From Nyssa sinensis (lineage: Eukaryota; Streptophyta; Magnoliopsida; Cornales; Nyssaceae), in contig CM018049.1 in assembly GCA_008638375.1 (NCBI GenBank), forward strand, positions 2,344,001 to 2,408,000: DNA of 64,000 nt, read 5' to 3'. Each line of letters begins with the position of its first letter. The stretch's first letter is position 1. The translations under genes were made by a program, and so were the position numbers. Shown piece by piece: positions 1,361 to 63,019 of the stretch. The notes under the pieces were generated by a model that saw nothing but the letters and a program-made list of their open reading frames with translations, was not told the origin of the DNA and ran no database searches.

Positions 1361-1849
1361 AGCTGCCACGACCCGAAACCCACCCTATGCAGATCTCATG
1401 TCGCGGGGCCGACCCGAAGGCCGTCCCTACTTTTTCCATTCCTGTATCATAGTACTAATATGCAATGTACTAAAAATTTTAAACAATGAACAGCGGAAGT
1501 CTTTATCAATTACAGTAATCCAGCGGAAGTCTTTAAAATAAATTTAACAACGAAAGTCTATTAAATACATGACATGGTTCTACATAAGACAAAATGAGAA
1601 CTAAACATAACCAGCACCCGGGGGTGGTGAATACATGGGAGAACTAACATAGACTGATACAATACTTCAAAATGTCCCCCTACGCTCTCAGACTCCTACT
1701 GGGGTCTCGCAGCGTCATCACCTGAAATGGGGGTAAATGGGGTGGAATGAGCTACAAAGCTCAGTAAGTAAAACAGATCTCCAACACTGGTATCGATGAT
1801 CAATGTGAATCCATGAATAAGATAATGATAGCCAATCATAAGGAAGGAG

Positions 1850-1925
1850 ATGTTGTGATAGCCAATGAACATAATCGCCACGAGAGCCAATGGAAACAAT
1901 TGCCACGAGGGCCAATGAAAAGTAA
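1850..1925. repeat. Short tandem repeat, about 28-bp unit, in LTR A
   Basis: Three imperfect copies of a unit containing ATYGCCACGAGRGCCAATGRAA stand in a row. This is an LTR-internal minisatellite with no visible coding role. Confidence 0.6.
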
Positions 1926-2345
1926 TCACAATACACAATCAGGAGTAATAGTGTAAAATGAAAATATAACAACAATGAAGTACTGCCACAATGAACCGAT
2001 CACAATCAAATCAATCAATACAAGTCCTTCAAGACTTGAAGAATCATAAGGAAATGTGCCATTCAATCAATCAAGTTCTGTCAATCATAAGAGATGCTGT
2101 TATTCTGTTTCAGGGCTCGGCAGACCCTCGATCTTTTGGGGCCCGACATACCCCCTAGTCAATTCCAGTAAATTGCCATTTGTCCGTTCACGGACTTGAC
2201 CCGTAGGTCCCATTCAATCAGATAGCATCAGATGGGTGTTGTGACTGAGCACAACTCCCGTGCCCATAAACATGTCATGATCATAGTAATTCCATAGAAT
2301 ATAAAAATGGAATATCATTCATTCAATGAGGATACAGTAGTAGGC

Positions 2346-2547
2346 CTTTCAAGGCATGGTTCAATACGATAACAATGATATAATCAATCAAGCAATGTCC
2401 ACGAGATAGAACAAGATCTCATTGTGGATAGTAATAACATGAGTTGCTTTCAAAGCACAGTTAAACATGATAACAATGATATACCAGTGAATCAAATGTC
2501 CACAGGATAAAGAATATCGGATTGTGGAACACAAGAATATCAATACA
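2346..2547. repeat. 101-bp tandem duplication in LTR A
   Basis: Units start at 2346 and 2447 (CTTTCAAGGCA / CTTTCAAAGCA). They share GATAACAATGATATA and AATGTCCAC and are clearly diverged. They lie in the predicted second LTR intron. Confidence 0.7.
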
Positions 2548-2627
2548 TTTAAGAGTACGAGTTTGGTAGTAAAAGAATAAACTTGGCTTGTGGAAACACC
2601 ACATGTAAGAGAGAGTGATCCACTTAC

Positions 2628-2683
2628 CTCAATCGTGATTCTATCTCAGAAATCCGTGAGTATACGTTTGCCTTTCGAGTTCC
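2628..2683 (-). other. Predicted LTR exon 2, element A (56 nt)
   Basis: On the minus strand an acceptor TGATATATAG precedes the block and a strong donor GAG|GTAAGTG follows it. Block and donor align in position with the same feature in the other LTRs. It is non-coding as far as I can see. Confidence 0.5.
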
Positions 2684-4733
2684 CTATATATCAGTGAATA
2701 CGTTTCAGAATAAATGCTATTCATCAAATTTTATGCCTTTCTATCATAAGTATTTCAAATACTATTTTATACTTTACCATTGAGTCCGGAATGCCGAAGA
2801 AATTCGGTTTAGGCTTTCCCGGAATTCCATTTGGACTTTTGCACTAAAAAGGGCAAAATGGTCATTTTGCACTTTTACGGTATTTTATCCTTCAGGGTCT
2901 CATCTCATAAAACGGACCCCACCATTGGACTTAGAACATCCGAGATAATAGGTTTTGACTATTCATTTGTATCATTTGGACTTCGTTTGACCCAATTTTG
3001 AAATAGGGGCGTTATTGTAAAATTAATATTTAATTAATTTTTTATGTTTGGGCAACAGTGAAATTTCTTAAAATATTTGGGGCCGGTTCACAATTTCCAA
3101 AAGCTGCGGTCTGAACCAAAAACCCTAAACCGGTCTGCCCCTTCACTGAACCAAACGGTTCAGTCCATTCAGAGAACCGGATTCCAATATCCTGGTTCCT
3201 ACCCTTATCCGTGGTTGGAATAAGCCCAAACCCAATTTCCATTTCCTATCCCCATAGCCAAACAAGCCCAATTCATTTAAATTTAAAACCCAAACGACAC
3301 AGTTTTGGCTCCGTTTTATTTCCGATCGAGTACTGACCCGATCCGAACCCGGATCCGGTCTAGACTTAACCCGAACAGACCCACGCTTTTCCGGTCATCT
3401 TCCCCACTGCTCCGGTAGGGTTCCGGCGTGAACAGTCGTCTTCTCCGACGACTGTCACATATTTTCCGGTGGTTTTTCCCCTCATTTTGAATGCCATTCT
3501 TTTTCATTTTTTATGTAGATTATATTTCTACCTTTAGATTTCAGTTTAACCTTTTAGTTCTTCACGAAATAGGGGTTTAACATTTCCGGCCGAATCTCCG
3601 GCCAAGTGATATTTTTCTATTTCGTGACGTTTTGATCACGGTTTTGGTCCTAGCATTTTTCTAGCTTGTTTCTGCAACTCATTAGATCATTTTTAGAAAC
3701 TTTAAAATAAGTTTTAATCATGATATTCATGGAACCCGAGATTATTCCATCAACCTGCAACTCGTTTTTTTCTCCTTGGTTTCTAAACCATTTAACCTAA
3801 TTCTTTTTGCATTTAAAAGCTAATATCATGCTCATTTAGACCCTAGATTTAGATCAAACATTCATGCTTCAAATCTCAAAAACAGAACTAAATGGCTTAC
3901 CTGGGTGTCGGGTTTTTGCCCTGTGTGACCCTCCAAACTTCCCTATTTCTGCTCCTGAGCTCTTTGCCAACCTTTCTCTCAATCTCAGTTTTCTTTTTTT
4001 TTTTGCCTTTAAACCCACACCCGTATGTACATATATAGAGAGAAGGGTTCCACCGCCTCTCTCCCTTTTTCTCCTTCTCTCTCTCGGTTACTCCCCCTTC
4101 TATGGCCCCTTTCTTTGACTGAAGCCTGATGTTCTCTCTGCCAAATGCAAACTTTGCATTAAATGGCTTGGGAGACTTGTGTTGCACTCATATATACATA
4201 TATCATATTATATATATATTACACACATATCTCACCTAGCCGACACATACACACACCTCACATTTAGTCCACCTGTATAATGCCCAAGGGCAGTTCTCCC
4301 TTTTCCCTTTTCTTTTCCTTTTATTTCTTATGCTTATACATATATACACAATTATATGTATAATACATCATATTATATATATATATATATAAGTATATAC
4401 ATACACACCAAATACATGTTTTTATACATGTATATACATGCATATGTAGGGGTACAATCCCATTTTTAATCGTATACACATACACTTATTTTAATTGAGC
4501 TATGTATCTATGTTCACGTATGCATGCATGGAAATACGTGCATGCACGCATTTCGATGCAATGCCCTGTGGTGCTCGGGTGTTACCCAGCCTTGGTCATT
4601 CATTTCCATCATTTACAGTTCCAGTCATTCATTTCCATGAAAATACTATGATATACATATCTTACCGTTCAAGTTACATGTGTTAACCGACCTACCTCGG
4701 TATACGTGACGTATCCCGGATCGGGATATTACA

Positions 4734-6796: not shown

Positions 6797-7453
6797 TGTA
6801 ACACCCCGACCTAATTAATTAATAATTAGTCTGCTAATTATTAATTAGACAAGACATAAAGAATAATCAAGAGAGTTAATCAGGAATTTCTCGAAGGTTG
6901 CGATAGGCCAATAAAAGGTTGCGATAGGCCAATAAAATAATTAAATGTGTCAAGAGAGGCGGGTGTAAAACCCGACCCTAATTACCAATTAATTAGGTGA
7001 AACGATGTCATGGAAATTTGAATTGGCGAACTATGACGACCACCAAAAAATAATGACCGGTGCAAGGCCTTTAACGTCGAAGCTAACCTAAATAGGGAAT
7101 GATGAGAAGAAACCGCTTCATAAAAAGAACAATGGGAAAGAAATCATGGAGGAAATAGTTAAAACAGAAATCTGTGCCAGCCAAACGAGGCATAAACCTA
7201 AAATAGAGGAAAAATGCCAAAAAGTGATGCTAAGCGATTTGAACCCTTAACCAAAAGAGACAAGGTTTTAAAGTCCTAAAAAATTACCACTTGACCCACA
7301 AGCACTTTTGTGCTTTATTTTACACAAGATGTATATATGTATATCATATAATGCTTAATTTCTGAATATAAAAAAAGAGGTGGCAGCCCCTCATTGGACC
7401 ACTACTTCCACCAATTGTATTTCATGCAGCCAACCCAAAATATAAAATATGTT

Positions 7454-7455
<2 letters not shown>

Positions 7456-7484
<29 letters not shown>

Positions 7485-7650
7485 TGCGTGTGAGGGATTG
7501 AAACTCATAAATCCGAACTGTATGTGTGTGTGTGTACGGCAGTGTGTGTGCGTGCTCATGTAGAGAGAAAAAGTAAGGTAGAGAGAGAAAGTGAGGTAGA
7601 GAGAAAGAGAGAGTGAAGGAAGAAGGAGGAAGAACAAGGAGAGGAGAGTG
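7456..7650 (+). repeat. AT, GT and GA microsatellite leader of LTR B
   Basis: (TA)n near 7456-7480, (TG)n near 7521-7550, then GA-rich repeats to about 7645. This order of simple repeats downstream of the putative promoter recurs in several LTRs here. Apparent reading frames across it are repeat artefacts. Confidence 0.7.
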
Positions 7651-9548
7651 AAGCTACCTGATGCATGCATGGCAACCTCAGTTGGAAGGATCAAGGATCA
7701 AAGCCAAGAGATGGACTGCCATCACAAGGTAATCACTCAACATGTATTTATCTCTCTAAAAAGGTTGAACCTTTACTTGCTGATTTTAAGCTCCATGAGG
7801 CCTAAAATTAAAGGACCTTGCTCAAATTGGGTCTGAACCGAGTTTACACAAACATGTTTTGATGGCTAGGGTCCACAATTATATGCTATAAGGACCTCAA
7901 AAACATAAAAATTAGACCCAAAAAGCTTAAGCGATGAGAGAGATTTTGAATAGCAGGTCACAGGTTCAATATGAAATTTTTTCCATTGAATTTAAACACT
8001 AGTTTTGTAAACGGGAAAGTGATCCTTAGGGTCCTATGATCACAACAAACCAAAAATCTTTGGATTTGTTGAAAAATGGGGACGTATGGACCAAATATCC
8101 AGTCAGCCATTCATGGTAGAACCATGCGTTTGAACTTGTTCCAAGCTATGAAACCAATATCAAAACATTTATTAAGCTCCCAAAATCATACTAGAATATA
8201 AAACAATAAGAATCCATGCTAGAAAACCCACAAAATGAAGAAGAAAAATTTAGGGTTAACTAGTTCACGTCTCCCTTGACGAGGAAGGTGATGAACAGTA
8301 CCTCGGGTCGGGTATCGGGTCAATAACGGTTCGGGTCCCGACCGTATGATGTATGGGTTTGAACTTAAACAACACGGCATCATTTAAGGCGTTTCATTTA
8401 ACTGATGTGGCAGACCGGCTTGGACCGGTTGATTTTTAATGGTTTAGGGACGGTTCACTTAAAAATGGGGCAAACCAATTGGTTTTTAGAATAAATTTTA
8501 AGGGGATTTCAAAAGTAAGCACTGAACTGGTGGGTTCATGTTTAAACCAAAAACCAGAATTTCTGAAATTTCATTTTAAAACCCCAAAAACTTGGGTAAA
8601 TTATAAAATAGCCCAGGAATTTAAATAAATAAAAATCCTAACTTGTTAAATTATGGTTTAACCCTAACACTTCCTAATAATTCTGTTATGGCCCAAAATT
8701 TTAAGGAATTAATTTAAATAAGCCCCTGAAAAATAATTAATAAATTAATTTAATTATTTATTAATTGGATAAAATGACTAATTTACCCTTAGACCATAAA
8801 TGGGTCAAACGAAGTCCAAAATAAATAAATGAATAGTGTATTTTGACTATTTCGAGAATTCCAGACCCAATGACAGGGTCCGTTTTACGAGATGAGATTT
8901 TGAGAAATATAGACACGTAAATGGTAAATGACTATATTGCCCTAACGATACCCAGGGCTAATTAAAAAATAAAAGATAGTCCATTTTATTTATGTCGGAC
9001 ACTCTAAACTCAACGGTGGAGTCCATACTAGCAAACAAAGTACTGAAAAATGTGACGCGTGAAAATAAAAAATTACCAAAATGCCCATGGTACAGTACGA
9101 AGCCAAAATAAAGTCCAAATTGGACGAAATTGACACTAATGGAAGCCCAAATAATTATGAACTCACAAGTGTGACTAAATAATAATTCGGGGTCAGAATA
9201 TCACAAAATATGAAATGACCAAACTACCCTTAAGCATGAAAAATGCAAAGTAAAGGCCGAATAAATTAGAAAAGAAGGCCAGTCTGATATAAAGCATAAT
9301 TATAGGACTAAACAAGACTCTGAAACAATTAACGTATAAAATGAGAAATGACTAGAGCCAAAATGACTTAAAATTTTATTCTGACAGCTTGTAAGCCTAT
9401 TTAAGGAATTTAATAACATAAGTTGAAATCCAATGAGTGGGTAATAGGCCAACGAACCTAATTAGGGGATCTAATAAACTCCTAAGATGATGAATAAGAC
9501 ATGAATGAACGAATTCTGATCTGTCTATGATTAATGATGATTATTCAG

Positions 9549-9626
9549 GCTATGCAAGATATGCTTGACGTATTTAGAGATTACCAGAGTATTTGAAAAT
9601 GGAGAATGCAATACTAAGAAACCGAG
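9549..9626 (+). other. Predicted LTR exon 2, element B (78 nt)
   Basis: It is bounded by acceptor GATTATTCAG and donor CCGAG|GTAAGTAAAC. It aligns with the D block (28017-28092), which has the same acceptor. Confidence 0.55.
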
Positions 9627-9944
9627 GTAAGTAAACCCGAACTTTGTTATGTGGTCCTTCCTCAGCTAGTCACATTTATTTTCATATGCTTCCAAACTTG
9701 TACTCCATTACCTACCTGATGAACCTGATTTCTTTGATTAATGCCAATCGACTTGTGATTATTTGTTCATGCCTGTAATTTGGGTTCGACTTACTCTCTT
9801 ATATCTTGTTGTGATCTTGACTTGTCGATGCTTGAGCATATTTATACCATCAGGTATATCGTGTTATGATCTCATAATATATCTATTGTTGGAAATCTTG
9901 TTTGTTCCGTACACTCATGCAACGTTGATTAAGATATGGTTGTT

Positions 9945-10080
9945 CTCGGCAGCCTGGTAACATAGCCATAAAAAGCTATAGTTATATATTGTTGCCTTGA
10001 ATCGGTTATGCTCTCGGCAGCCTAGTAACATAGCGGAAGGAAGCTATGGTTATATTATGTTTCCTTGAACTAACTAGTTA
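9945..10080. repeat. 68-bp tandem duplication with a hairpin in LTR B
   Basis: Units start at 9945 and 10013 with CTCGGCAGCCTRGTAACATAGC. Each unit holds the inverted repeat CATAGC...AGCTATR, able to form a short hairpin. Confidence 0.7.
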
Positions 10081-10344
10081 CCATCCACATCCTTGTTCTT
10101 GTAGAGAGTAACATGATCATGAGATTTTATATGTGCTTGGGGTTGTGCTCAGTCACAACGGCCCATCTATTCAAAAAATTACGTGGGGAAAGACCCTTTG
10201 GGGTCTGTTGTGTCCTACGGGACCTGTAGTAAAAGAGCTTTGGCTCTATTCAATAAGCCTGGGATAATGAGGCAAATCTGAATGTGCGTTATACTGGGGT
10301 ATGCCGGGCCCCGGATGATTCATGCATTCTTGGTTGTTAGTATT

Positions 10345-10475
10345 CGATGATGATATATCTTTGGTATTCGTTGAATGATCATATTATTAAACTCATGTTA
10401 TACTTTACTCGATGATGATATATCTTTGGTACTCGTTAGATGATCATGTTCTATGCAAGCATGTTATACTTTTGA
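10345..10475. repeat. 65-bp tandem duplication in LTR B
   Basis: Units start at 10345 and 10410 with CGATGATGATATATCTTTGG and share ATGATCAT and CATGTTATACTTT. Confidence 0.75.
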
Positions 10476-11435
10476 TTGGCTATCGTATTTGTTGTGGCAG
10501 CAGATTATCATGATTGGCTAGATCTCGGTTGTTGGATTCATTGTCGCGACCTGAAATTTGCCTCGCGCAGATCCCGTGTCGGGACCACCACCTGTAGACT
10601 CGGGGGTCTGAGGCAAGGCTCACATAAGCAGCGGTATCGAATAGATGTGCGACATGTGGTTTGCAGAAGCGTGAAAAACTTTTTCTTTTTCTTTTCTCAT
10701 TTTAAAATTTGCACATCCGTCCGGTACTGCCGCTCTTTACATTGTAGTACACATGATCATACATTCAGAGCATAACTAAAAATTTAAAAACTTTATAACA
10801 TTACATGTCCACTACCCCGAGAGGCTTAATACACATTCTTAAATTGTCTACTAATACAAAATGTACTATTAGAGTTCATAGGGTTTCCCAAAAGAAACTA
10901 CTTAAACATATCTTCCTGTAATAAAAATTGTGTAAAGGTTTTTATACTTAAGAGAAAAATTAATTAATTAAATAATTAATTAATTTAAAATATAAGAATA
11001 TATTTAATTATTAAAATTAAATTCAAATAAACACACATATACACACATTATGGTGTATTATGTGTGTATGTTATCAAGTGTATATAAATATGTCTATGTA
11101 TATCTATATATACATGTACACAAGAAAATATATATATATATATGCTTAAAGTGTGAACAGTGCAGTGTGTGAGTGTGTGTCGACTATACATGTGTGTGTG
11201 TGTCTTGGTGTTGGTGTGAGAACATATATAATATACATATATATATATATATATATACATGGAGACAAGGAGGTATGGTGGGAAGTAAGGGGAGGTAAGG
11301 CTTGATTTGAAATAGGAATGGGAGAAGGGATGGCCAAAATCAGTACAGTATGGCTGTTGATTGTGATGGGGTATGGGAGTGAGAGAAATATACATATATA
11401 AATATATGATATATACACACCCATGACACATGGAC

Positions 11436-11436
<1 letters not shown>

Positions 11437-11470
<34 letters not shown>
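11437..11470 (+). repeat. (AG)n microsatellite in the leader of LTR E
   Basis: About seventeen AG repeats follow the AT/GT repeats and precede the donor match. This is the GA-rich leader position seen in LTRs B, C and G. Confidence 0.9.
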
Positions 11471-11472
<2 letters not shown>

Positions 11473-12489
11473 AAGAACTCGGAAGAGGAGAAAGGAAAAT
11501 CAGAGATCAAGAAGAATCAAAACCGTAGCAACAAAAGGTAAGAAATTTTGAAAGTTTATTAATTTCTCTCTCTAGAAGTTAAGCATAATTATGGACTGTT
11601 TCTAAATTGATCATGTAGATATAATGTTTAGGTTATATTTAGACCTGTTTAAACATGAAATTCGAGCTTGAAAACAGTAAGAAAACACCAACCAGAAGCT
11701 ACGGCCATGGGAGACCATGTTCAAGCAGATCTGATCCGATGGAAACCGAACCCTTTTCGGGTTACTGAGGCAAAAACTATACCCCACGCACACTCTAAAA
11801 ATCCTATTACGCGATCATGAAGCTCAAAAACCGACCTCCAAATATCGAGTTACAGGGTACGGGTTGACAAACTCAATCCTTAAACTCGTATCAAAACCCA
11901 AATAAAAGAATAAAAACTAAATCCCCATGAAGAGGGGATCAAAACAAGCTAAACCCCATGAAAAATAATCAAGAAATGAGCATGAACCAGTGGGCTTAGA
12001 GTTCGGATTATCATGGCTTAAACCGAGCCTCTGAGCTAAATTCGAAGCTTAAAATCAATGTAAAAATATGCCATAGGGTTTTAGGAAATGATTGGAGAAG
12101 AAATGTAACACCCCGACCCTGATTAAGAAATGATTAGTTACTAATCATTAATTTGAACCAAACATAAGAATAATTTAGAAGTTAATCGAGAACCTCATGA
12201 TAGACCCATAAAATAATGTCTGAACCTCATTACCAATTAATTAGGTGAAATGATGTTACTTTAACACTAAGAAAACTCGAGTTAACAAACTACGGGAATT
12301 TCAAGGGATTAATAACCGACACTAGACCTTAGATATTGAAGCTAACCTAAATAGAAAGTGACTGGAAGAAACCGCGTCGAAAAAGGAGCAACGGAAAAGA
12401 AAATATTTAGGAAATAGCCAAAATGGAATTCTGCGCCAACCAAACAGGGCCTAAGCCAAAAAAAAGGGAAAAATAGCCAAAAGTGAGGC

Positions 12490-12564
12490 CAAGGGGAATT
12501 GAACCCTTGACCAAATGGGACAAGCTTCTTATTACCCAAAAAATTACCAAGTAGGCTGCTACCA
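12490..12564 (-). other. tRNA-like module in LTR C
   Basis: On the minus strand it reads TAGCAGCCTACTTGG (A-box-like), about 40 bases of spacer, then AAGGGTTCAATTCCCCTTGG, containing the exact B-box match GGTTCAATTCC. It is antisense to the LTR and lies just upstream of the TATA box. It is not a functional tRNA as far as I can fold it. Confidence 0.55.
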
Positions 12565-12574
12565 TCTTTGTGCC

Positions 12575-12581
12575 TATATAT
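12575..12581 (+). promoter_or_regulatory. Candidate TATA box of LTR C
   Basis: The context TTTGTGCCTATATATGCAACC is shared with LTR D at 25272-25292. It lies before the leader and the first donor match. Confidence 0.5.
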
Positions 12582-13700
12582 GCAACCAAATTGTATTTAA
12601 CCCAAATTAGCCAAGGCCACCTCCCAAATTGGCCAATGGCCATGCATGCAATCCCCACATCATTACCCCACATCACCCCCTATCACCTCCGATCAGCCAC
12701 CAAACCCACTAAATCTGATATACATATATATATATATATATGTATAGGTTATATGTAAGAGAAATGCCATATCATATATATGCATACCCCACACTCTTTG
12801 ACCCCAAAAAGAATCAGTTACTCCTCAGACTTGTGTGTGAGTGTGTGCTCATGGAGTTGGCTGAGAAAGTGAGGTTAGAGAGAGGAGAGAAAGGGCATGG
12901 TGTGAGAGGGAAAGTTGACCCCATCCAAGCGTGTGCATGCATGTGAGTATCACCAAGTGTACCTGAAGAAGTCTGAGCAACCCTAAGGAGCGTTGAGAGG
13001 GCCTGAACCAAGCCAAAGAAGAGACCAGCCACTGTCAAAAGGTATAAACCCAAAATTGTAAAATTTTTCGTATAGAATTTTTGCTATTGTTTTTGATGTT
13101 TTGAGCCTGAATAACTGCATGCATGATACCTAAAATGTAATATCATGAATATGGCATGAAACTAGAGCATTGAATCGACCCTAAAACACCCACACAGTGC
13201 ACATCCGCCATGGACGGACCTCAAACTTTGCAGGTCTGAACCGACCAACGTTGATCAGACTTAGGCCTGTTAGAACTTAAACTAGACCCTTCTAACATCT
13301 CCAAAACCGACATGTGCGACCCTAAATACTTGGAATCGACCACCAAACCATGAGTTGCAGGTTCGGGTTTAAAACCCAATTCTTCAAAAAACACGACCAA
13401 ACTAAAATATGAGAACGGGGACTTGAACCCCATGCCCTGTAGGTCACGACACATCAGATCTCATAAGAAACGGACCTAAAATGAGGGTGCTAGAACGAGT
13501 TGCAGGTCACTGTTATCATATTGAAAACATACCACTTAGAGTTTAATTCGAAGCTTGAAATGCATGTTAGATTAATGGTATGATATGCAGAAACTGTTTT
13601 GGATCGAAAATAGTGAATAACCGAGCTCAAAGTGTCACAAATTTGAAAATTTGTCAAACTATAAATTAGGGGCTACAGTAGCAGAAGCGAGGGGGAAGAC

Positions 13701-51597: not shown

Positions 51598-51760
51598 CCA
51601 AAGATAGGTAAGCAAGCATATCATCAATCAAATAATGTATCATCAAATAATCCAAGAATAGGCTCACAAGGCTTATCAATAACTAACTAGTACATCATCA
51701 AACAATCCAAAGATAGGCTAGCAAGGCATATCAATAACCAAATAGTGCATCATCAGGATA
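51598..51760. repeat. Tandem repeat, about 55-bp unit, three copies, in LTR K
   Basis: Units start at 51598, 51652 and 51707 with CCAARRATAGG and share CAAGGCWTATCAATAAC and CATCATCA. Confidence 0.75.
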
Positions 51761-53382
51761 TATTCAATAACGATATGAGCTACTAAAAGAATAGATGTTG
51801 TCACAAATAGGGCCCGGCTACCCCCAAAAGCACTCATCTAGGTTCACCCCACTAACGGGCTCTTGAATAGCACTAGAGTTCTTTATCACCTATCATGTCC
51901 TCCATGGACTAAGTGTTGGGTGTCATTCCCAATCACCAACCCGTAGGTCCAAAAGCTTCTATGAATCATATGGATGTTGTGATAGATCACAACTTCAGGC
52001 ACTCATAATAATATCATGATCATTAAAATCTCACATGCGATGTGCATATTTGTCACGACCCGAAACCCACCCTGAGCGGATTACCGGATCGCGATCGCCG
52101 CCCCGAGACCCGAGGGCCTCGAGACAAGGCTCGCATATACAGCGGTATTGAATAGATGTGCAACATACATTTTGCGGAAGCATGAAAAACTTTTTCTTTT
52201 CTTTTCTCGTTTTTTTAAATTATGCACATCCGTTCGGTACTGCCGCTCCATACATAGCATACATGGTTACACATTCAGAGTATAATGAAAACTTAAAGAC
52301 TTCATACATTCATACCATACATATTCGATGGCCCTGAGGGCTTATTACATATTCTTGCATTGTCTATTAATACAAAACGTGCTATTAGTGTTCATAGGTT
52401 CTTCAAAAGAAACTACTTAACATATCCATCCAAAAAGACAGCTAGACTCATCGTTGTCGTCCTTAAGACCCTGTCTGCTGCATCACCTGAAAGGGGGGGT
52501 CCGAACAAAGTCCGGGTAAGCTAATCTAAGCTTGTGAGCAATTCCAGTATTCGTCATGGGGTTTTCAATTAGCAGTGGTTTAGTACATAAAAGTTTGTAA
52601 AATAGTCACCGCCAATTGTTCGTATACTTTGAATACAGAATATATGCATTCCTTAAAACATGTAGCTTTGAAACATTTAAATTATTCAAGCTAAACTTAT
52701 ACATATGAACTTTAAAACATATAACATATCATGTATTTCTTAAATAGAGTATATAAAACTCAAACATATGCATATTGAAAATGAGAGTAAAAATCTGCTT
52801 CCATTTTCAAATCATTTGTCATCTTATCACTTCCGTTAGTGGAATCCGTTTCGAACCGGACTCCCATATTACTTATAAATGGAGATATCTCATTTGCCTG
52901 GGGGATTAAATCCTGCTACCGGCATTTTACAGGGCAATTGGGTTCCGTAAAACCCAAAATCCTGCCTATTTTACAGGGCAACTGAAAACTCAGAATCCTA
53001 TCTAAGTGCTTATGCACCATTCATCTTGCATAAAAAAAAAATACATTTAACATATGAGTATATCAAATAGATATTTCTTGTGAGTACTTTAAAACATAAC
53101 ATTCATAACTTCGTGATAAACATTCGTATACTTGAAATAAGCAAATTCAGAATATTTAACACTAATTGCATTTTAACTAGACATGTTGAAAAGTATTTGA
53201 AGGAAACTGTTGCAGAAACCAATCACTGAGCATGTCACAATGGGGTTATAAAAATAGAACAATTAAAAAAACTGAATCATGTAAACACTGAATTTGAAAT
53301 TTCAAACATTTCATATCTTTGCATTTAAAACCTTTTTAAATCCATGGAGTTAAATCTCCACTTCAAACACAGGGTTACTCAC

Positions 53383-53437
53383 CTTGGTTCTTTAGGGTTA
53401 GTGCTAATAATGCGCTTTCCCACTTTCCTCGTAGTTC
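53383..53437 (-). other. Predicted LTR exon 2, element L (55 nt)
   Basis: Minus-strand acceptor ATTCTTAG, purine-rich block, donor ACCAAG|GTGAGTAACCC. Nearly identical in sequence to the E block. Confidence 0.62.
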
Positions 53438-53819
53438 CTAAGAATAATTCATAAACATCTCATCAACTTCACATTCATTGTAATATCATCATGATATTCC
53501 TTAACTTATGCTTAAATCGTATTAGATCCTAAAACGATTTTGTAATTTCGTATGTACTTAACTTAACTCGTACTCTTAACCTATGACACAATTTAATGTG
53601 TTAGGAATTGAATTTATTTCAATTTATACTCTTCTGGGAGCTCCATTAACTTTAATTTAAAGTTATTTATTTGACATGTTTACGTGTCGTGTCTTTTCGT
53701 ATTTCATTCCTCGTATACGCCTTAGTATTAATACTTTGGCAATATTTCAGTCCATAGTCATTTAACAGATGCTATTCATCAAATTTTATGTCTTTTATTT
53801 TAGACATTTCTTTTGGTCG

Positions 53820-54260
53820 AATAGACTCTATCACTGAGTCCGGAGTGTCGAAGAAAGTCGGTTTAGGCTTTCCTAACATTTTATTCAGACTTTTATATAT
53901 GAAAGGACAAAATGGTTATTTACCGTTTTACGTGTCACATTTTTCTGTACTTCGTTTCGTAATTTGGACTCCATTATTGAGTCCGGGATGTCAAAGAAAG
54001 TTAATTTAGACCTTCTTTGATTTCATTTTGGCTTTAGGGGTACCAGGGGTATTTTGGTCTTTTTACCCCTTTACGCGTCTTTATTTTTCGGGACCCCATT
54101 TCGTGTCGTGAACCTCACTATTGGACTCAGAAGCTCCGAGATAGTAAGAATACACTAATAACTTGTTAAATTTGGTTAAGGGGTATTTTGGTCATTTACC
54201 CCTTACGTGTTTTTATTTTTTGGGACCCCATTTCGTAAAATGGACCCCACCATTAGTCTC
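53820..54260 (-). repeat. Four-copy inverted-repeat module array in LTR L
   Basis: Motifs at about 53824, 53966, 54109 and 54242; the second is GGACTCCATTATTGAGTCC, identical to a copy in LTR I. Confidence 0.78.
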
Positions 54261-54605
54261 AGAATGTCCAAAATAGTAAAAATACACTATTCATAGGCTT
54301 AGTTTGGACTTCCTTTGCTCTATTTATGACCCAAGGGCAAAATAGTAATTTTGCTTTATTTATTAAAATAATTAAATATTTATTTAATTATTTAAATATT
54401 TTTCTAGGGGTGAAATTGAACAAAATTCTCAAAATCTGGGCCACAGTAGAATTTCCCTCAACAGTTGGGGTCAATCCGTAAATAGGTAAAGTGTTGGTTT
54501 ATTTATTTTTTAAATAATTTAGAAACCAAAGGGTTCGGTCCAGTTTTAAATGAACCAGTCCGGTTCAGTCGTAAACCAACCGGTTTATCCGGTTTATTTA
54601 CATGT

Positions 54606-54630
54606 GGCTGACGTCATCATGACGTCAGCC
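54606..54630. promoter_or_regulatory. Perfect double TGACGTCA palindrome in LTR L
   Basis: Arms GGCTGACGTCAT and ATGACGTCAGCC flank a single C, so two TGACGTCA cores sit in one 25-bp perfect inverted repeat. Confidence 0.62.
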
Positions 54631-55675
54631 CTAGGTCTCATTTAAATTAACCACGACCCAAAACGTCGCCATTCCATTTAATCGGTGGCAAGCCCAGAGG
54701 CTGCCACCTGTCCGAGTCGACTCAGCCACATTTTAAAAACGAGTCAACCCGTCATCGTCTTCCCCAATCGACCGACTGAAAAACCCTAGTTTCAGTTTCC
54801 CTTTTTCTTCTATTTCGTGACGTTTCACTCAATCTTTCTTCACTGTTTTTGTCCCAAAATGTTCCTAAGGTTTATACAATTCGATTGGCATTCATTTTAG
54901 ACTTTAAAACCCCTTCATATGTTCGGTTTTGAACTCGATAATCCGAACTGTTATTTCGGTCGTTCATGCTTATTTCTTAACCAAATTTCATGGGATTTTG
55001 TTTGTTATGATCCCCTCTTCATGGAGATTCATATATCGTTCCTAAATATCGATTTAAACTAAGTTTTAAAAGGGTTAGGGTGTAACCCGTAACCTGTAAC
55101 TCGATATTTGAAGGCCATTGTTTGTGATTTTTGGTCGCGGTCACACGTTTTTATAACCTTCATGGCTTCTTCTTGAAGCCTTGATACACCATTTTTGGTT
55201 TAGTTGCCATGGGTTCAGACCTGCTTCAAGCAAGGTCCTCCCATGGCGGTTCTTCTGGGTTTCATGTTGTGAGTCATTTTCATGGCCTAATTTCATGCTT
55301 AATACACGTCTATATATATATTTAAGCATCATATACACAAATCATAACCTAATCTCTTAACACATGCAAAATATTCTAGAGAGAGAAAATGACAACTTTG
55401 AACATTTCTCACCTTTTTGGCCGTGGGTTCTAGGTCTTTTCTTTCTGATTTCCTTCCTCTTCTTCTCCTTCAGTTCCTTAGCTTTCTTTTCTTACGAAAC
55501 AAGCATGCAATGCATGTTTGTTCCTTTTAAAGAGAAGGGAACCGACCTCTCTCTCTCCTCTATTCTCTCTCTCTCCTTTCTCTCTCTCTTCTTTCTGATT
55601 TCATAGCCCTACATAGCCTTCCCATCTCATAAATTTTGCTTTCCTTCTTTCCTACTTTGCATTTAATTTTTGAGA

Positions 55676-55683
55676 TATTTATA
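55676..55683 (-). promoter_or_regulatory. Candidate TATA box of LTR L
   Basis: The minus strand reads GTATAAATATCTC at the edge of the AT/CA repeats and before the CT/GA leader. Confidence 0.45.
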
Positions 55684-56251
55684 CATATAATATATATACA
55701 TATATATACATATACACATATAAGACAACACACACACACACACACACCAGCCGACACACACACACCTTTTCACACACTGTTCACTCTTCTACTTTATCAT
55801 ATTTTACTTTTACATTTTACATATATCATTTAATTAATACATATATATATACATATACATTTAATTAATACATATACATATATCCATTTCTTATAATTAA
55901 TTAATTAATTTAATAATTAATTAATTATCTATATATAATTTCTTTTTCTCGTAATACGTGCCATGTGACCCGGTATCCCGGGTCGGGATATTACAATATT
56001 TGTGGAATAACAAATTCTTAGCAGTGAGAGGCATAGCAATTTTCTAATATCCAAGCCAGGTATAGAAATGAACAAGTAATCACATTAAGATATTGGAAAT
56101 CAAATTCTCAACAGATCTACTAGGTAGAATAGGCATCAAATTGGGGAAATCAACAATGTAAGTATATATAGAATATAAATTGGCAGCATCGAGGAAATAA
56201 AATTTTGACATGGCTAGGAATTACCACATGTTAGAGTTCGGGTTTACTTAC

Positions 56252-56315
56252 CTCAAAATAGTCCTTCCTCCTTTCCAGAGGAAATCAAATTCCTTTTTCT
56301 TCCCTTTTGATGTCC
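56252..56315 (-). other. Predicted LTR exon 2, element K (64 nt)
   Basis: Minus-strand acceptor GGTTTATAG, purine-rich block, donor TTTGAG|GTAAGTAAACC. Confidence 0.55.
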
Positions 56316-56820
56316 CTATAAACCAAGAAACATTATTTAGTTCAATATCACTCATAAACTTAACTCGATTTCATTTATGAAACTACAATCTTTTAGTTTC
56401 ATGTGTCGTATTTTAAGTCTATGGACTCATCTACCTCTTTCTGGGTCTCATCGTTCTACCTTCACGGTGTCCCAATAATGGCTAATTTCATACATCAGTA
56501 TTTTAGGCATGTTATTTAGCAAAATGGACTCCACCATTGAGTCTAGAACAAAACTTTAAGGTGGGTATTCTCATAATTTTTGGAGGTCGTTTGGTATCTT
56601 TATTTGACCTTTAGGATATTTTTGGGATTAACCCAGTTTTTTCGTTCACATTTTTTGAGATTTAATTTCGTAATTTGGACTCCTCCATTGAGTCCGAAAT
56701 GCCTAAAAATATTGGGTTACATTATCTTTTTGTTTTATTCAGACATCGGGAACAATTTACTAGATGAAATTAATTTAATTTTTTTATTTTATATTATATA
56801 TTTATTCAGGTACTATTTTA

Positions 56821-56930
56821 ACTAAGTGCCTTAGTGGCACAGTGGTTCACACATGTGGGTTAAGTTCCACACACATGCACACGTCCAGGGATCGAGTCTT
56901 ACAGGCTACAGGCTTATGATTTTTTTCTAA
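56821..56930 (+). other. tRNA/SINE-like fragment in LTR K
   Basis: TTAGTGGCACAGTGGTTCAC resembles an A-box head and GGGATCGAGTCTTAC a B-box (GGTTCGANTCC with changes), followed by a T-run. The spacing fits a tRNA-derived SINE head. No TSD was checked, so this is tentative. Confidence 0.4.
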
Positions 56931-57324
56931 TTTTTCGAAAACCAAATGGCGGATAAGGGTCCAATTTAAGGATAGGATATCCCTGTTTTGTCTGAGACTT
57001 ATTCAATTAGATTTCTTACACTCGTCACCAAATAGACCTATTCAATTTTTAAATTAAAACTAAACCTCAATATGACATTGTTCCACTTAAAACATTTGTG
57101 CGATGCGACGGGTCTTGACCCGAACCCAAACTGACTATAGACCTAACCCTTTCTTGTTCATCGTCTTCCCCATCCGCTGAGCGAATGTTGCCCCAGTTTT
57201 AGGTTTCTTAAACCTCTATTTCGTGGAGTTTTAGAACCCTATTTTCTCTGCTTTCAAGTCTTATGGAATCCTAGGGCGATAAGGGTTATTTTGGCGTTGG
57301 TTTGGGACATTAAGGTGAACTCAA

Positions 57325-58078
57325 AAGCTTGGTTGAGCTTCCATGGTGATTTCTGATTTTTGCTTTGTACATGTTTGTTGCTCCATCAAAATTGATGGGG
57401 TTTCGTTTGTGATGACCCTCACCTCATGGGGATTCAATCCTCGTTCCAAAAATTAAGATTAGAGTTTATTTTAAAGGGATGGATTTTCAATCTCATGGCT
57501 GCAACTTGTGATTTCATGACCTTCTTTTGGGTATTTCGATCGTGACCTAGGGTTTTTACAACCCTTATAGTGTCTAGTTTCAATCCTAAACATCAAAAAT
57601 GAGTTTTATTAGCATTGGCTCAGACCTAGGTTTTTTAAGGTACATCAATGGCAATTCTGAATTTTCTTAGCTTAAAACTGTCCTATTTTGGTTCTCTTTT
57701 CTTGTAACACACACCCTACTTACATGCATGTACTCAAGGCTATCAAACAATCACCAAACAACACAAAATCATCCTTGTTAGTCAAAGGAAGAAAATTGGA
57801 TTTAAAGCTTTTTACCTTCACAATGAGCCCTTTTCTCCCTCTAGCTTCAAGCTCAAGCTTCTGAATCTCCAAAGCTAGCTTCTAATATTGCATGCATGAG
57901 CTTCTTCCTACTCCTTCTTCTTCTTTTCGTCTTATTCTCTCTCTACCTCACCCTCTCTCTCTCTCTTTACATGCACATGTATAATAAACACACACTAAAC
58001 ACACACACACCTAAGGTCTGAGCTTGTATACTACACAACACACACACACACACCTGTCATATATATATAACACATGTC

Positions 58079-58090
<12 letters not shown>
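57325..58090 (-). repeat. Distal K LTR segment, copy 1 of a diverged duplication
   Basis: It shares long stretches (for example TCCATCAAAATTGATGGGGT and CTCATGGGGATTCAATCCTC) with 58150-58294 plus 62482-63020, in the same order and orientation. This copy includes the CT-rich leader and AT/CA repeats. Confidence 0.75.
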
Positions 58091-58109
<19 letters not shown>

Positions 58110-59496
58110 ATGAAATATTAGTGAGAGGGGGTCCAATGGTATGCTGACAGCTCAATTTTGAATTTTGAGCTTCCATGGTGGTTTCTAAATTTTGAATAGT
58201 ACACACTCATTTCTCCATCAAAATTGATGGGGTTTGGCCTGTGATGATCCTCACCTCATGGGGATTCAATCCTCGATCCAAAATCAAGATTTAGTGTCAC
58301 GACCCAAAACCCACCCTATGCGGATTAAAGATCGCGACCGCCACCCTTCAGCTCGGAGGCCTTAGGGCAAGGCTCACATAAGCAACAGTATCGGACGGCG
58401 ATGTGGCCTGTGGTTGTGGAAGCGTGAAAAATTTTTTCTTTTCTTTTCTTATAAAAAAATACTTTCGCATATCCATCCGGTACTGCCGCTCTTCATAGCG
58501 GTACACATGAATATACATTCAGAGCATACTAAAAATTTAAAGTTCTACATAATACATATCTATTTGCCCATCGAGGCTTAAGTACATATATGTCCCAAAA
58601 TTACGACAACAAAATTCGACCAACTATAGGTCCTATATTACAAAAGTCCTTATCAAAATGGAGCTGCCAATCTCCTATCCCCAAATTGGGCAAGGCTCCC
58701 ATCCTTCTCCTATCACTTGAAAAATGTTAGGGAATGAGGTGAGCTTCGAGAAGCCTAGTGAGTAAATCCAAGATTTGCCATGGGTTTCAATTGGCAGTGG
58801 TTTCGCACGTGAGAGTTTATAAAATACTCACTACCAATTGCTCGTATACTTGGAACATAGAGTATATGCATTCTTTAAACATTAGCTTTGAAACATTTAA
58901 AGTATTCAAGCAAACATGTACTTTTCACATAAAGTATATGAATTTCAAATCATGTAAATATGCATGGTGAAAATGAGGGAAAAAAGCCTACTTCCATTTT
59001 CAACACACACCTTATCACTTTCATTAATGGAATCTGTTTCGAACCAGATTCCCGTTTTGCTTTACGTGGAGATATCTCATATGCCTAGGGGATTAGATCC
59101 TGCTACCTGGCATTTATTCATTTCGTGGTTGAGTTCCGAAGATACTCAACAAAAATTCGTGGTGCTTATGCACAGTTTATCTTGCATTTAAAAACATTTA
59201 ACCCATACTCTCTTCACGTAGATGCATTTATGAGCATTCAAAACATATAGTTCATAACCTCATGATAGGATCTTGAAATACATGAAATGTGCAAATTCGG
59301 AATATTTAATAACATTCAAAATCGAGATCTTAAACATGCTGAAGTATATATTAAAAGAACAGTAGTAAAAATTATTCATGAAGCATGACATAACCGAATA
59401 TTTAAAACAGGAATGGTGTAACAACTAAAGTTGATATTTAAAACATTATTCAAATTCGTGGAATTAAATCTCCACTTTAAATATAAGGTTACTCAC

Positions 59497-59550
59497 CTTG
59501 ATTCCCCAGGTTTGCACTATTGGTGGGCTTTTCCCTTTCCTTTGTATTTC
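59497..59550 (-). other. Predicted LTR exon 2, element M (54 nt)
   Basis: Minus-strand acceptor GATTTTCTTAG, purine-rich block, donor ATCAAG|GTGAGTAACC; close to the C block in both edges and length. Confidence 0.6.
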
Positions 59551-61982
59551 CTAAGAAAATCAAATTCACCAAAACTTCAATTAATTCCTCATCTACTTCA
59601 ATTCATCACTAAGTTGATGCTCTGTATTTAATTTTGACCCGACGTATCCTAATTTCCTAGGATTGGTCTTACCGGTCTACTTGTGGTAACTTAATAAATT
59701 TTTATTTTTCACGTGACTTATTTTTCAGTGCCTATTTTGGTATTATGTACCTCACCGTTGGGTTCGGAACGTCGAAGAAAGTCAATTTAAACCTTCACAA
59801 CTTTTTAGTTGGCTTCGGGCATATGTAGGGGCAAAATGGTAATTTATTTTTCTTGCCCCGGACCTATCATGGTCCCCAGAATGTTCCACATATCTTATTC
59901 GTAAATTTTTAAGTCTTTTGGACTTCATTTGGTATTTGCTTTTGGTCATGGGGACACATCAGTCATTTCTCATTTTGTATGTTGACTGTTCCGGAGTCTT
60001 ATTTAGCTCTTAAATTTTCATAATTTTGCTTATGACAGTAAATTTTTGGCCTTTACTTGTACTTCTCGTACTCAGGGGTATTTTGGTCATTTATATTTTA
60101 GGACATTCTGTCCCCTAATCATTATTTAGTCATATATACGAGTTCATAATTATTTGGGCTTCTATTGATATCAATTTCGTCCAATTTGGATTTCATTTGG
60201 GCTTCGTATTGTATTAGGGGCAATACTATCATTTAACATCTATGTGTCTGTATTTTTGGGACTCAATTTCATCAATTCGACTCCACCATTGAGTCCGGAA
60301 TGCCCGAAATAATAAGAATACACTGTTTATTTATTTAATTTGGGCTTCGTTTGACTCATTTGTGTCAAAGGGTAAAATAGTAATTTTACCTAATTAATAA
60401 AATAATTATTTTATTATTTAATTATTTTTCAAGGGCTTATATGCACAAGTTTTTCAGAAGCTGGGCTAGAACAGAATTTCCTAGAACTGTTGGGGCTCAA
60501 AACATGATTTAGCAAACTTCCGGTTTTCTTTAATTTAATTAACTTAATAAACCATTGGGTTTACCTTAGTAAACCCTAGACCAGACCAGTAGTATGCTGA
60601 ACTAGCCAGTTGATATTCCTTCAGGAATATCAACCGGAATACGATATCCCTCTTATTCCCAATTGGCCCTTATCCACAATTTGGACAGACCCGAAATTCC
60701 AATTTTAATTTACAATCCGTGTTACCAAATAGACTGATTTTAGTTTTAATTATTAAAACATTTAAACCAAAATTGTGCCGTCTCACTTAAACCGTTTGTG
60801 CGACGGGTCGGGTCTCGACCCGAATCGTGTTCGGTACTATTCATCTTCTTCCCTTCTTCTTCCCTAGTTTTGCCCTAATTTCTAGTTTTCATGTTTTTCA
60901 ATTTCATGATATTTTGGCCACGGATTTCTACTGCTTTCCATCCCAAATGATTTCTGGAAGTTAGGCCAACATTTTGGCAGTCATTTGAGGGCTTGAATCA
61001 AGCTCAAATGCTTGGTCCAATGGTGGATAACCGAACCTGTAATTGGCTAGTAAATCCTCGATTCATCACCAAAACTTGCATGGTTTGGCTCAAACTAATC
61101 CTCATGAGATGGAGATTCAACTCCCATTTCAAAAATGTGGTTTAGAAGTCTTAAACAGTGGCTGGGTTTCATAGCCGAACCCTGCAACTCCATATTCGAG
61201 GGTCATCCTTTGAGATTTTTGGTCATTTCTAAGTGAATTTGGGATGCCTACAAGATCTATTTTAGGTCTTGGATGTCAAAAATCAGTTTTATGGAAGTCG
61301 TTTCAAACCTACAATGTTGAGGTCTGTCCATGGCGGTTCCTTTGGTTTTAGGGTTCTTCAAGCCCCATTGGCCTTCCCAATTAATTCTATAACAATCTCT
61401 AATGTCACAGTAGCTAATGCATGCAACTAATAGGGCTCAAAATATTAAAAACAGTAGAGAAATTTAAACAAGAAAAATGGAACAGTTTTGAGGTTATACC
61501 TCTAAACAGTGAGTTCCTCTCTCTATGGCTCGACTCTGACCTTCCAAATGTTCCTCAATTTTCCCAGGCTTTTTCAGCTATACTGGAAGACACTTAGATG
61601 CATGCACACACTTGAACGTGGTCACCTTTCCCTCTCATACCATGCCCTTTCTCTCCTCTCTCTAACACTCACTCTCTCAGCCAACTCCACGAGCACACAA
61701 TCACACACAGTTCTGAAGGGTGCACTGATCTTCTAGAGGGTCAATAGTGTGAGGTGTATGTATGTTTATAATATGGCATTGCTCTTGCATATAAGCTATA
61801 CATATACATGGGTGTACATGAGGGTATCAGACTTAGTGGGTTTGGTGGCTGATCTGAGGTGAAAGGGGGTGATGTGGGGTAATGATGTGGGGATTGCATG
61901 TATAGCCATTGGCCAATTTGAGAGGTGGCCTTGCTAATTTGGGTTTAAGTACAATTTGGTTGCACATTTAAGCACAAGATAG

Positions 61983-62058
61983 TAGCAGTCCACTTGGTAA
62001 GTTTTTGGGTAACAAGAATCTTGTCCCACTTGGTCAAGGGTTCAAATCCCCTTGACCT
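61983..62058 (+). other. tRNA-like module in LTR M
   Basis: TAGCAGTCCACTTGGTAAG (A-box-like) and GGTTCAAATCC (B-box, 62039-62049), antisense to LTR M. Confidence 0.55.
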
Positions 62059-63019
62059 CACTTTTGGGCATTTTTCCACATTTTGGGCTTAGGCCTTGTT
62101 TGGTTGGCGCAAAATTTCGTTTTGGCTATTTTCTAAATATTTTCTTTTTTGTTGCTCATTTTTCGACGCGGTTTCTTCTGAGGGTTTCGTATTTTGGTTT
62201 GCCTCATTATCAAAGGCCTCGTATCAGTTATTATTTATTTTTGGCCATCATAGTTCGTTAATTCGAGTTTTCATAGTGTTAAAATAACATCATTTCGCCT
62301 AATTAATTGGTAATTAGGTTCGGACATTACGCCCTCATTTCTGATGTGCTTAATCATTTTATTGGCCTGTTATAACCATCATAAGGTTCTCAATTAACTT
62401 CTTAATTATTCTTTATATCCGTTCTAATAATAATTAGCAAACTAATTATTAAATAAATCATGGTCGAGGTGTTACATTTAGTGTTCGTTTTTGACAAATT
62501 GATTTTTAAACCTATGGCTATAACTCACATTTTAGGGGCCCTCTTTTAGATATTTCAGTCGCTGCCTAGGGTTTTTATAACCCTTGTAGTGTCTAGTTGA
62601 AGTCCTATGTGTCAAAAAAATGATTGTAGTTAACATTGGTTCAAACCTGGGTTTTCAAAGGTCCAACAATGGCAGTCACGGTTTTCCTTATTTAAAACTA
62701 CGCCATTTTGCCTCTATTCTTTACTACCATATGTGAAAAATCACATACACGCATGTCTATTACACTTAACAGCATGAAATCACTCTTTTTAATCAAAGAG
62801 AGAAAATCTGTTTTTGAAATGTTTACCTTCAAAATGAGTGGTTCCTTTCTTTCAAACTCAAGCTTTTGAATCCCCAAAGTTAGCTTTTAAATTACATGCA
62901 TGAACTTCCTTTCTTCTTTTCCTTCTTCTCTCTCTACCTCACACTTTCTCTACACGCACATGCACTCAGAACACACACTAAACTTCATGCACACTCCTAA
63001 GTTTGAGCTTGTATATTAC

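What the first reader, a model, noticed from the sequence alone, without database searches (positions are those of the whole stretch)
1364..62476. Diverged LTR families share a conserved exon-intron-like plan (candidate spliced LTR leader)
Seen: twelve of thirteen LTRs hold a short block (51-56 nt in A, C, E, F, H, I, L, M; 64-105 in K, B, D, G) between an acceptor (Y-rich ..TTAG/TCAG) and a donor, mostly AG|GTGAGTAAC. All thirteen have a further acceptor-like site near the LTR 3' end (for example 15734 in C, 29220 in D, 52487 in L), with the CAG altered in M. At least ten have a first donor after the leader (3900 A, 7729 B, 13042 C, 25766 D, 11538 E, 19283 F, 36699 I, 55412 L, 61499 M, 57815 K). 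Sites keep order and orientation on both strands although surrounding sequence is diverged. Known: leader introns occur in plants. Inference: the LTR is transcribed from its own TATA box and the 5' leader is spliced, removing the module array from gag-pol mRNA while unspliced RNA serves as the genome. I am not aware of a described system in which a plant LTR itself encodes a three-exon leader.
Basis: partly seen in the sequence, partly recalled or inferred. Interest (0 to 1): 0.86.

Follow-up and report, generated by a model that had tools for sequence, protein, structure and literature searches.

The report
Plant LTRs built like spliced genes
Thirteen diverged families of terminal repeats (LTRs) of plant Ty3/gypsy retrotransposons in this stretch share, in the same order, splice-site sequences around a short exon-like block, so these LTRs are predicted to work as small three-exon genes whose RNA would be spliced, a layout that is likely undescribed for plants.

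Summary
In 13 LTR families (mostly nested solo LTRs) an acceptor, a 51-105 nt block, a donor (D2, mostly AG|GTGAGTAAC) and a later acceptor (A2) recur in the same order and orientation. D2 is the top-scoring donor of its LTR in 10 of 13. In a scan of the last third of eight LTRs, D2 and A2 are the best conserved windows apart from the LTR terminus. T content steps at the borders as in plant exons and introns.

Against: all four borders are intact in 8 of 13; single LTRs barely beat shuffles; in an alignment-free count D2 is not exceptional; block-body drift is seen in one of three pairs.

The LTRs therefore look like three-exon Pol II units, and gag mRNA may use a further acceptor before the gag ATG. 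Splicing itself is untested: neither RNA data nor genome-wide copies were reachable. Closest precedents: maize CRM4-derived spliced cDNAs and foamy-virus LTR donors.

The parts
1364..4733 (-). LTR A (5' LTR; followed by PBS and gag)
   Evidence: start/end motifs, PBS after 1364
6797..48862 (+). LTR B (solo, TSD tccct; J inserted, so pieces 6797-10541 and about 48097-48862)
12104..16162 (+). LTR C (solo, TSD agaaa)
24774..29716 (+). LTR D (solo, TSD atcct)
10917..30664 (+). LTR E (solo, TSD cttcc; interrupted by C, F, G, D)
16703..20143 (-). LTR F (solo, TSD gatag)
21033..24134 (+). LTR G (solo, TSD gcact, 3' end reads TA)
37561..46528 (-). Element H: two LTRs (3' LTR 37561 to about 40639, 5' LTR 42690-46528, 98.1% identical) around a 2-kb region without long ORFs; TSD actat
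32988..37397 (-). LTR I (solo, TSD ccaac)
10542..48096 (-). LTR J (solo, TSD ttcat; interrupted by E, I, H)
50953..63030 (-). LTR K (interrupted by L and M; PBS and gag follow; 5' end not found)
52051..55995 (-). LTR L (solo, TSD atatt)
58295..62476 (-). LTR M (solo, TSD tttag)
3899..3900 (-). D1 donor of A (cag|GTAAGC); others, first intron base: B 7729, C 13042, D 25766, E 11538, F 19283, I 36699, K 57815, L 55412, M 61499
   Evidence: AG|GT in 10 of 10, T step at the border in top 3.3% of 2991 GT sites
2628..2683 (-). exon 2 of A, 56 nt
9549..9626 (+). exon 2 of B, 78 nt
14762..14815 (+). exon 2 of C, 54 nt
28017..28092 (+). exon 2 of D, 76 nt, donor context damaged (TT|GT)
20995..21032 (+). 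exon 2 of E, first piece (second piece 24135-24156; G inserted)
17472..17527 (-). exon 2 of F, 56 nt
23145..23249 (+). exon 2 of G, 105 nt (by motif)
43977..44044 (-). exon 2 of H 5' LTR, 68 nt (3' LTR copy 38846-38913)
34240..34290 (-). exon 2 of I, 51 nt
31580..31634 (-). exon 2 of J, 55 nt (AA|GT donor context)
56252..56315 (-). exon 2 of K, 64 nt
53383..53437 (-). exon 2 of L, 55 nt
59497..59550 (-). exon 2 of M, 54 nt
15684..15734 (+). A2 region of C: branch-like TTACTCAT, small hairpin GGGCTT/AAGCTC, pyrimidine tract, CAG
   Evidence: top conserved windows; hairpin in the 12-copy alignment, G left out
15735..16162 (+). exon 3 of C (A2 to LTR end) with UUGUA-like motif; others: A 1364-1721, B 48308-48862, D 29221-29716, E 30235-30664, F 16703-17127, G 23876-24134, H5 42690-43196, H3 37561-38067, I 32988-33420, K 50953-51326, L 52051-52486, M 58295-58716, J 30670-30722 plus 10542-10916
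29350..29355 (+). D3: strong donor (CAG|GTAAGT) inside exon 3 of D; homolog in H at 43066 (5' LTR) and, weaker, 37937 (3' LTR)
1173..1192 (-). A3: acceptor-like site ending 2 nt before the gag ATG of A; similar site in K at 50299
2..1171 (-). gag ORF of A, 390 aa to the window edge
   Evidence: Pfam PF03732, PF19259, PF00098

Best explanation
These LTRs share a three-exon layout, TATA-like run - exon 1 - D1 - intron 1 with a module array - A1 - exon 2 - D2 - intron 2 - A2 - exon 3, with all four borders intact in 8 of 13 families, and their RNA is predicted to be spliced at these sites. Shown by sequence: the ordered sites, their strength and conservation, the exon-like composition and the poly(A)-like motif in exon 3. 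Inferred: the host spliceosome removes intron 1 (1.2-2.4 kb in the uninterrupted copies with a D1) and intron 2 (0.3-1.1 kb in uninterrupted copies). Inferred: RNA that takes A2 ends in exon 3 as a short polyadenylated LTR RNA, which makes exon 3 the end of R. Inferred: RNA that goes on into the element either stays unspliced (genomic RNA) or joins D2 to an acceptor just before gag (A3; via D3 in the D/H family), which removes most upstream ATGs. Bound U1 at D1 and D2 would also help the 5' LTR to suppress its own poly(A) site.
For: Same order and orientation in 13 of 13 families on both strands, with D1 assigned in 10. D2 is the best donor of its LTR in 10 of 13 and second in E. The claimed exon is first of 905-1127 candidates in 7 of 9 uninterrupted LTRs. 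In an alignment of eight LTRs from before A1 to the LTR end (2369 columns), D2 is the most conserved window apart from the LTR terminus, followed by A2 and a branch-like AATTACTCA. Between L and I, exon 2 is only 45% identical while the first 60 and last 80 nt of intron 2 are 85% and 87% identical. Exon 2 has less T than both flanks in 12 of 12 copies scored (means 0.20, 0.34, 0.40; E and the H 3' LTR left out). At D1 the T step lies in the top 3.3% of 2991 GT sites in 10 of 10. A UUGUA-like motif is in the first 220 nt of exon 3 in 9 of 9 uninterrupted LTRs, against 10 of 109 intron-1 and 7 of 54 intron-2 windows, and 0 of 9 antisense. With interrupted copies it is 13 of 13 sense (only 57 nt used for J) and 1 of 12 antisense. 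In A, upstream ATGs fall from 69-74 (unspliced) to 13-18 (three exons) or 1-6 (exons 1-2 joined to A3) for two assumed start sites.
Against: No RNA evidence. D and J have damaged D2 contexts (ranks 46 and 11) and M has no A2. D1 is not found in G, H or J. A2 scores are mediocre in E, G, I, J and L (ranks 10-29), and A1 in H ranks 72. Shuffled LTRs reach the exon score in 2-14 of 60 trials for the seven good copies and always for D and H5; the antisense strands of F and D score higher than their own sense best. A1 is not among the most conserved windows. The body/border contrast seen in L/I is absent in C/M (exon 2 83%, borders 88-89%) and only half present in C/L (exon 2 69%, 83% after D2 but 68% before A2). 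In an alignment-free count, 540 10-mers occur (one mismatch allowed) in at least 10 of 13 LTRs; D2 10-mers reach 10, intron-1 module 10-mers 12-13, an A2 10-mer only 7 (6 antisense). The UUGUA motif is also common in U3 (9 of 24 windows), and I chose it after I had read some exon 3 sequences. Copies share ancestry. The splice-site weights and the poly(A) motif are recalled, not fitted. A3 scores are modest (5.4 and 6.8).
Confidence: 0.62

Rival explanations
1. Pure leader splicing: the sites serve only to shorten the 5' leader of gag-pol mRNA, exon 3 runs on through the PBS into gag, and the LTR poly(A) site lies elsewhere.
For: Strong D1, D2 and A2 in order. LTR A is followed by a PBS and an open gag ORF. 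Splicing cuts upstream ATGs from 69-74 to 13-18 in A.
Against: Exon 3 plus the internal leader still brings 12 ATGs in A. The poly(A)-like motif is denser in exon 3 than in the rest of the LTR. The coding-less H element keeps D2 and A2.
Confidence: 0.18
2. The donors work without splicing: U1 snRNP bound at D1/D2 protects LTR-initiated RNA from premature polyadenylation, as at the foamy-virus major splice donor, and the acceptors are rarely used.
For: D2 is the strongest and most conserved donor and lies upstream of the poly(A)-like region. Foamy viruses do this (PMC3694450, abstract) and Arabidopsis U1 suppresses intronic polyadenylation (PMC11489095, abstract).
Against: It does not explain the conserved A2 acceptor with its branch-like and pyrimidine parts or the T-poor exon 2.
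Confidence: 0.1
3. The conserved blocks are not splice sites but DNA- or RNA-level control elements (promoter, silencing target, packaging signal) that resemble them by chance.
For: Other conserved motifs sit in the same LTRs: the intron-1 modules, the stem-loop near the LTR end. Single-copy exon scores are not beyond shuffles.
Against: Three kinds of evidence (donor rank, conservation peaks at D2 and A2, T step) coincide at the same positions.
Confidence: 0.1

Closest known systems
Maize CRM4-derived tandem repeat cDNAs (PMC3648361; passages read)
   Same: [quoted passage not shown] 5' ends lie 18-43 nt downstream of the TATA box.
   Different: Transcripts of a satellite derived from the element; no conserved three-exon plan across diverged LTR families appears in the passages I read.
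Foamy-virus LTR major splice donor (PMC3694450; abstract)
   Same: Splice donor inside the LTR, upstream of the poly(A) signal; U1 binding suppresses 5' poly(A).
   Different: Animal retrovirus, one donor; no second exon or acceptor within the LTR (recalled).
Plant Ogre, EVADE, BARE1 and sunflower Tyran/Varan splicing (PMC12786077, PMC6317226 and PMC7730604, passages; PMC3735527, abstract)
   Same: Plant LTR retrotransposon RNAs that are partly spliced, with spliced and unspliced forms.
   Different: As described there, introns lie between gag and pol or within the coding part and make short gag or other truncated forms; no LTR intron is mentioned in what I read.
Tekay/Del chromoviruses with long LTRs, such as rice Retrosat2 (PMC3485330; passages)
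   Same: Ty3/gypsy elements with LTRs over 3 kb and many solo LTRs.
   Different: In that paper 'splic' occurs once, in the reference list, and 'intron' not at all.

Membership tests
Ty3/gypsy (Metaviridae) LTR retrotransposon | TG...CA termini, 5-bp target duplication, PBS after the 5' LTR, gag of the Ty3 type | tested here: met
   Termini and target duplications (G ends TA); tRNA-Met-type PBS tggtatcagagc after A and H (primer identity recalled); gag of A matches Pfam PF03732 and PF19259
Tekay/Del clade of chromoviruses | clade position in RT/INT trees, chromodomain at the integrase end | not tested
   pol here is decayed; the clade guess rests on long LTRs, PBS and gag look (recalled)
Spliceosomal introns | GT donor and AG acceptor in order with conserved context | tested here: met
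   all four borders intact in 8 of 13 families
Spliceosomal introns | removed from RNA | not testable with these tools
Foamy-type LTR (donor upstream of poly(A) within R) | functional poly(A) signal downstream of the donor in the same LTR | tested here: inconclusive
   UUGUA-like motif in exon 3 in 9 of 9 LTRs; cleavage not shown
[quoted passage not shown]
   the sites described lie in the LTR, a different place

The most novel reading that the evidence does not exclude
A lineage of plant retrotransposons has turned its LTR into a complete three-exon Pol II gene with its own terminal exon. The choice between the A2 terminal exon and an acceptor at gag switches the element between a short spliced LTR RNA and gag-pol mRNA, while intra-LTR donors silence the 5' poly(A) site as in foamy viruses; solo LTRs then remain autonomous spliced non-coding genes scattered over the genome.
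Probability: 0.28. Interest if true: 0.82.

Novelty: new variant of a known kind. Interest (0 to 1): 0.6.

Why it matters
LTRs of long-LTR families can be very numerous in plant genomes, so a spliced LTR unit would be a widespread source of ready-made exons, donors and acceptors near genes. It would offer an answer to how plant elements keep the 5' LTR from ending its own transcript and how they separate genomic RNA from mRNA. It can be tested with long-read RNA.

Tried and rejected
Genome-wide copies: the genome search on the window's own assembly was tried 16 times and was always busy. Relatives in viral and bacterial/archaeal collections: no gag relative and no match of the A2 motif. Rfam (gathering threshold) and tRNA scans of the window: nothing.

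Coding exon: rejected. Exon 2 lengths have no common frame (51-105) and its body is only 45% identical between L and I. By eye I noticed an acidic reading frame at the start of exon 3 in some copies (I, E, C); it is interrupted upstream and I saw no counterpart in D or H, so I dropped it. It may instead be a GAYGAYGA-type splicing enhancer (recalled).

Hairpin at A2: of five pairs, three are invariant and one has changes on both sides, too little for a covariation claim; in that alignment the CAG columns are not in register for B, C, D, F, H and M. Exon 2 free of ATG: true in 8 of 11 copies counted (E, J and the H 3' LTR not counted) but expected often by composition, so not used.

Literature: ten searches. 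Eight looked for LTR or leader introns or splicing in plants, and none of their listings or the passages I opened described a three-exon LTR; two searches looked for analogues. I opened 12 papers, by abstract or passages only. The library lacks most subscription journals.
Full report
What is there. The window is a pile of nested plant LTR retrotransposons. Seven of 13 LTR families (A, B, C, D, H, I, L) begin TGTAAYAYCCCG exactly and others with variants (E and G differ most; K's start was not found); ends are variants of GGGTCGTGACA or GGGATGTGACA. Target duplications of 5 bp were read for B, C, D, E, F, G, H, I, L and M and for J. Ten of the 13 families (B, C, D, E, F, G, I, J, L, M) are solo LTRs. 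H is a complete element: its two LTRs are 98.1% identical over 3073 aligned positions around 2 kb without long ORFs. A is a 5' LTR followed by a PBS and an open gag of 390 aa up to the window edge. K is followed by a PBS and a broken gag. The gag of A has 55 hits at 27-54% identity; most named ones are from Camellia sinensis, a few from Quercus and Actinidia, so the source is likely a flowering plant that I cannot name.

Site inventory. In LTR orientation the order is D1, A1, exon 2, D2, A2. A1 is AG in 13 of 13, D2 is GT in 13 of 13 (AG|GT in 11), A2 is AG in 12 of 13, and D1 is AG|GT in 10; G, H and J have no assigned D1. All four are intact in 8 of 13. D2 reads GTGAGTAAY in 9 of 13 (C, D, E, F, H, I, J, L, M), GTAAGTAAAC in B and K, GTAAGTGGA in A and GTATGGTGT in G. 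Intron 1 is 1.2-2.4 kb and intron 2 0.3-1.1 kb in uninterrupted copies.

Strength. With textbook plant weights (recalled), D2 ranks first among all sense GT sites of its LTR in 10 of 13, second in E, 11th in J and 46th in D. A1 ranks 1-8 in 12 of 13 and 72nd in H. A2 ranks 1-3 in 7 of 13 and 10-29 in five; M has none. Looking for the best acceptor-exon-donor combination of 40-120 nt, the claimed exon comes first in A, C, F, G, I, L and M and not in D or H5 (7 of 9 examined). Dinucleotide shuffles of single LTRs reach those seven scores in 2-14 of 60 trials and the D and H5 scores in all 60, and the antisense strands of F and D beat their sense strands. The case therefore rests on agreement among copies, not on one copy.

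Conservation. Eight LTRs (A, C, D, F, H5, I, L, M) were aligned from 150 nt before A1 to the LTR end. The best non-overlapping nine-column windows are the LTR terminus (0.958), D2 (0.944), the terminus again (0.903), A2 (0.861), a branch-like AATTACTCA (0.847) and CCCATG (0.833); the mean window is 0.43. A1 is only moderately conserved there (best rank 206 of 2361), partly because the aligner misplaced D and H5, and A's D2 is shifted by four columns. This scan leaves out intron 1. An alignment-free count of 10-mers (low-complexity ones dropped, one mismatch allowed, K without its 62477-63030 piece) finds 540 that occur in at least 10 of 13 LTRs. D2 10-mers reach 10, module 10-mers of intron 1 such as AGTCCAAATT 12, and an A2 10-mer only 7. 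So D2 stands out by position and in the last third, not in that count. Between L and I the first 60 nt of intron 2 are 85% identical, its last 80 nt 87%, and exon 2 45%. C and M show no such contrast (83% for exon 2, 88-89% for the borders), and C and L half of it (69%; 83% and 68%).

Composition. Plant introns are U-rich relative to exons (recalled). Exon 2 has less T than both 100-nt flanks in 12 of 12 copies scored; E and the H 3' LTR were left out. At D1 the 60 nt before the site hold 5-23% T and the 60 nt after 35-52% in 10 of 10, a step in the top 3.3% of 2991 GT sites. A TATA-like run is the most conserved window around exon 1, whereas the D1 position itself aligns poorly.

Exon 3 as a terminal exon. 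A UUGUA-type motif (recalled as the plant far-upstream poly(A) element) lies in the first 220 nt of exon 3 in 13 of 13 copies (only 57 nt used for J), against 35-50% of simple shuffles of the same stretch for the other 12, and in 1 of 12 antisense stretches. In uninterrupted LTRs it is 9 of 9 in exon 3, 10 of 109 in intron-1 windows (7 LTRs), 7 of 54 in intron-2 windows (9 LTRs) and 9 of 24 in U3 windows. Density is 3.7 per kb in exon 3, 0.6 in either intron and 1.7 in U3 plus exon 1. I chose the motif after reading some exon 3 sequences, so this is a lead. D and H carry a further strong donor about 130 nt into exon 3 (29350 and 43066), upstream of the motif in H and between two such motifs in D.

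Link to gag. In A an acceptor-like site ends 2 nt before the gag ATG (1173; score 5.4), and K has one at 50299 (6.8). No acceptor above score 4 lies in the first 390 nt of H's internal region. In A the predicted unspliced leader holds 69-74 upstream ATGs, the three-exon leader 13-18, and exons 1-2 joined to that acceptor 1-6, for two assumed start sites. H has no long ORF, yet its young LTRs keep D2 (rank 1) and A2 (rank 2; 5' LTR). The sites may then act for the element's own RNA in cis, unless they are simply inherited from a recent coding ancestor.

Known context. A 2025 review says that plant LTR retrotransposons generally lack introns, with Ogre and EVADE as exceptions (PMC12786077, passages). 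Sunflower direct RNA reads show spliced isoforms of two elements, while no Tekay element was in the expressed set (PMC7730604, passages). Maize CRM4-derived cDNAs are spliced in the UTR, and one also in the LTR (PMC3648361, passages). Foamy viruses carry a donor in the LTR upstream of the poly(A) signal and use U1 to silence the 5' site (PMC3694450, abstract). Arabidopsis U1 suppresses premature polyadenylation (PMC11489095, abstract). Back-spliced CRM1 RNAs exist, but the cloned one spans the proteinase-coding and adjacent intergenic region (PMC7010299, passages). Searches listed no plant LTR with a three-exon plan that I could recognise; the listings were capped and the library is partial.

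Verdict. Functional splicing is the likeliest reading but is not shown. The leader-only reading should be widened to a three-exon LTR unit with a terminal exon.

Noticed in passing
intron 1 of most LTRs, e.g. 14217-14600, 35191-35615: Module array (units spaced roughly 130-160 nt in C and I, with CCAATGGTGGGGTCCG and, in 18 of 28 sense hits, AATAGT..ACTATT upstream): 24 of 25 sense hits in LTRs with a D1 lie in intron 1, none in H, 3 antisense hits in all; one unit folds only mildly better than shuffles (z -1.64).
   Followed up: partly
15970-16081 and homologs in E, I, J, L, M: Conserved long stem-loop near the LTR 3' end plus a hairpin over the terminus; few double changes, so weak covariation.
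   Followed up: partly
50125-50643 and 50642-51160: 519-bp tandem duplication, 96% identical, that repeats the K LTR 3' end with its PBS.
   Followed up: no
57479-58042 and 62498-63027: K seems to carry two copies of its exon 1/D1 region (69% identical), now separated by the M insertion.
   Followed up: no
whole window: Ten solo LTRs against one complete element with both LTRs, nested several levels deep.
   Followed up: no
40640-42689: Internal region of young element H has no long ORF in the strand of the element: a non-autonomous element with 3-4 kb LTRs.
   Followed up: no
63021-64000: A third, broken gag on the + strand at the window edge, about 69-71% identical in DNA to the gags of A and K.
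   Followed up: no
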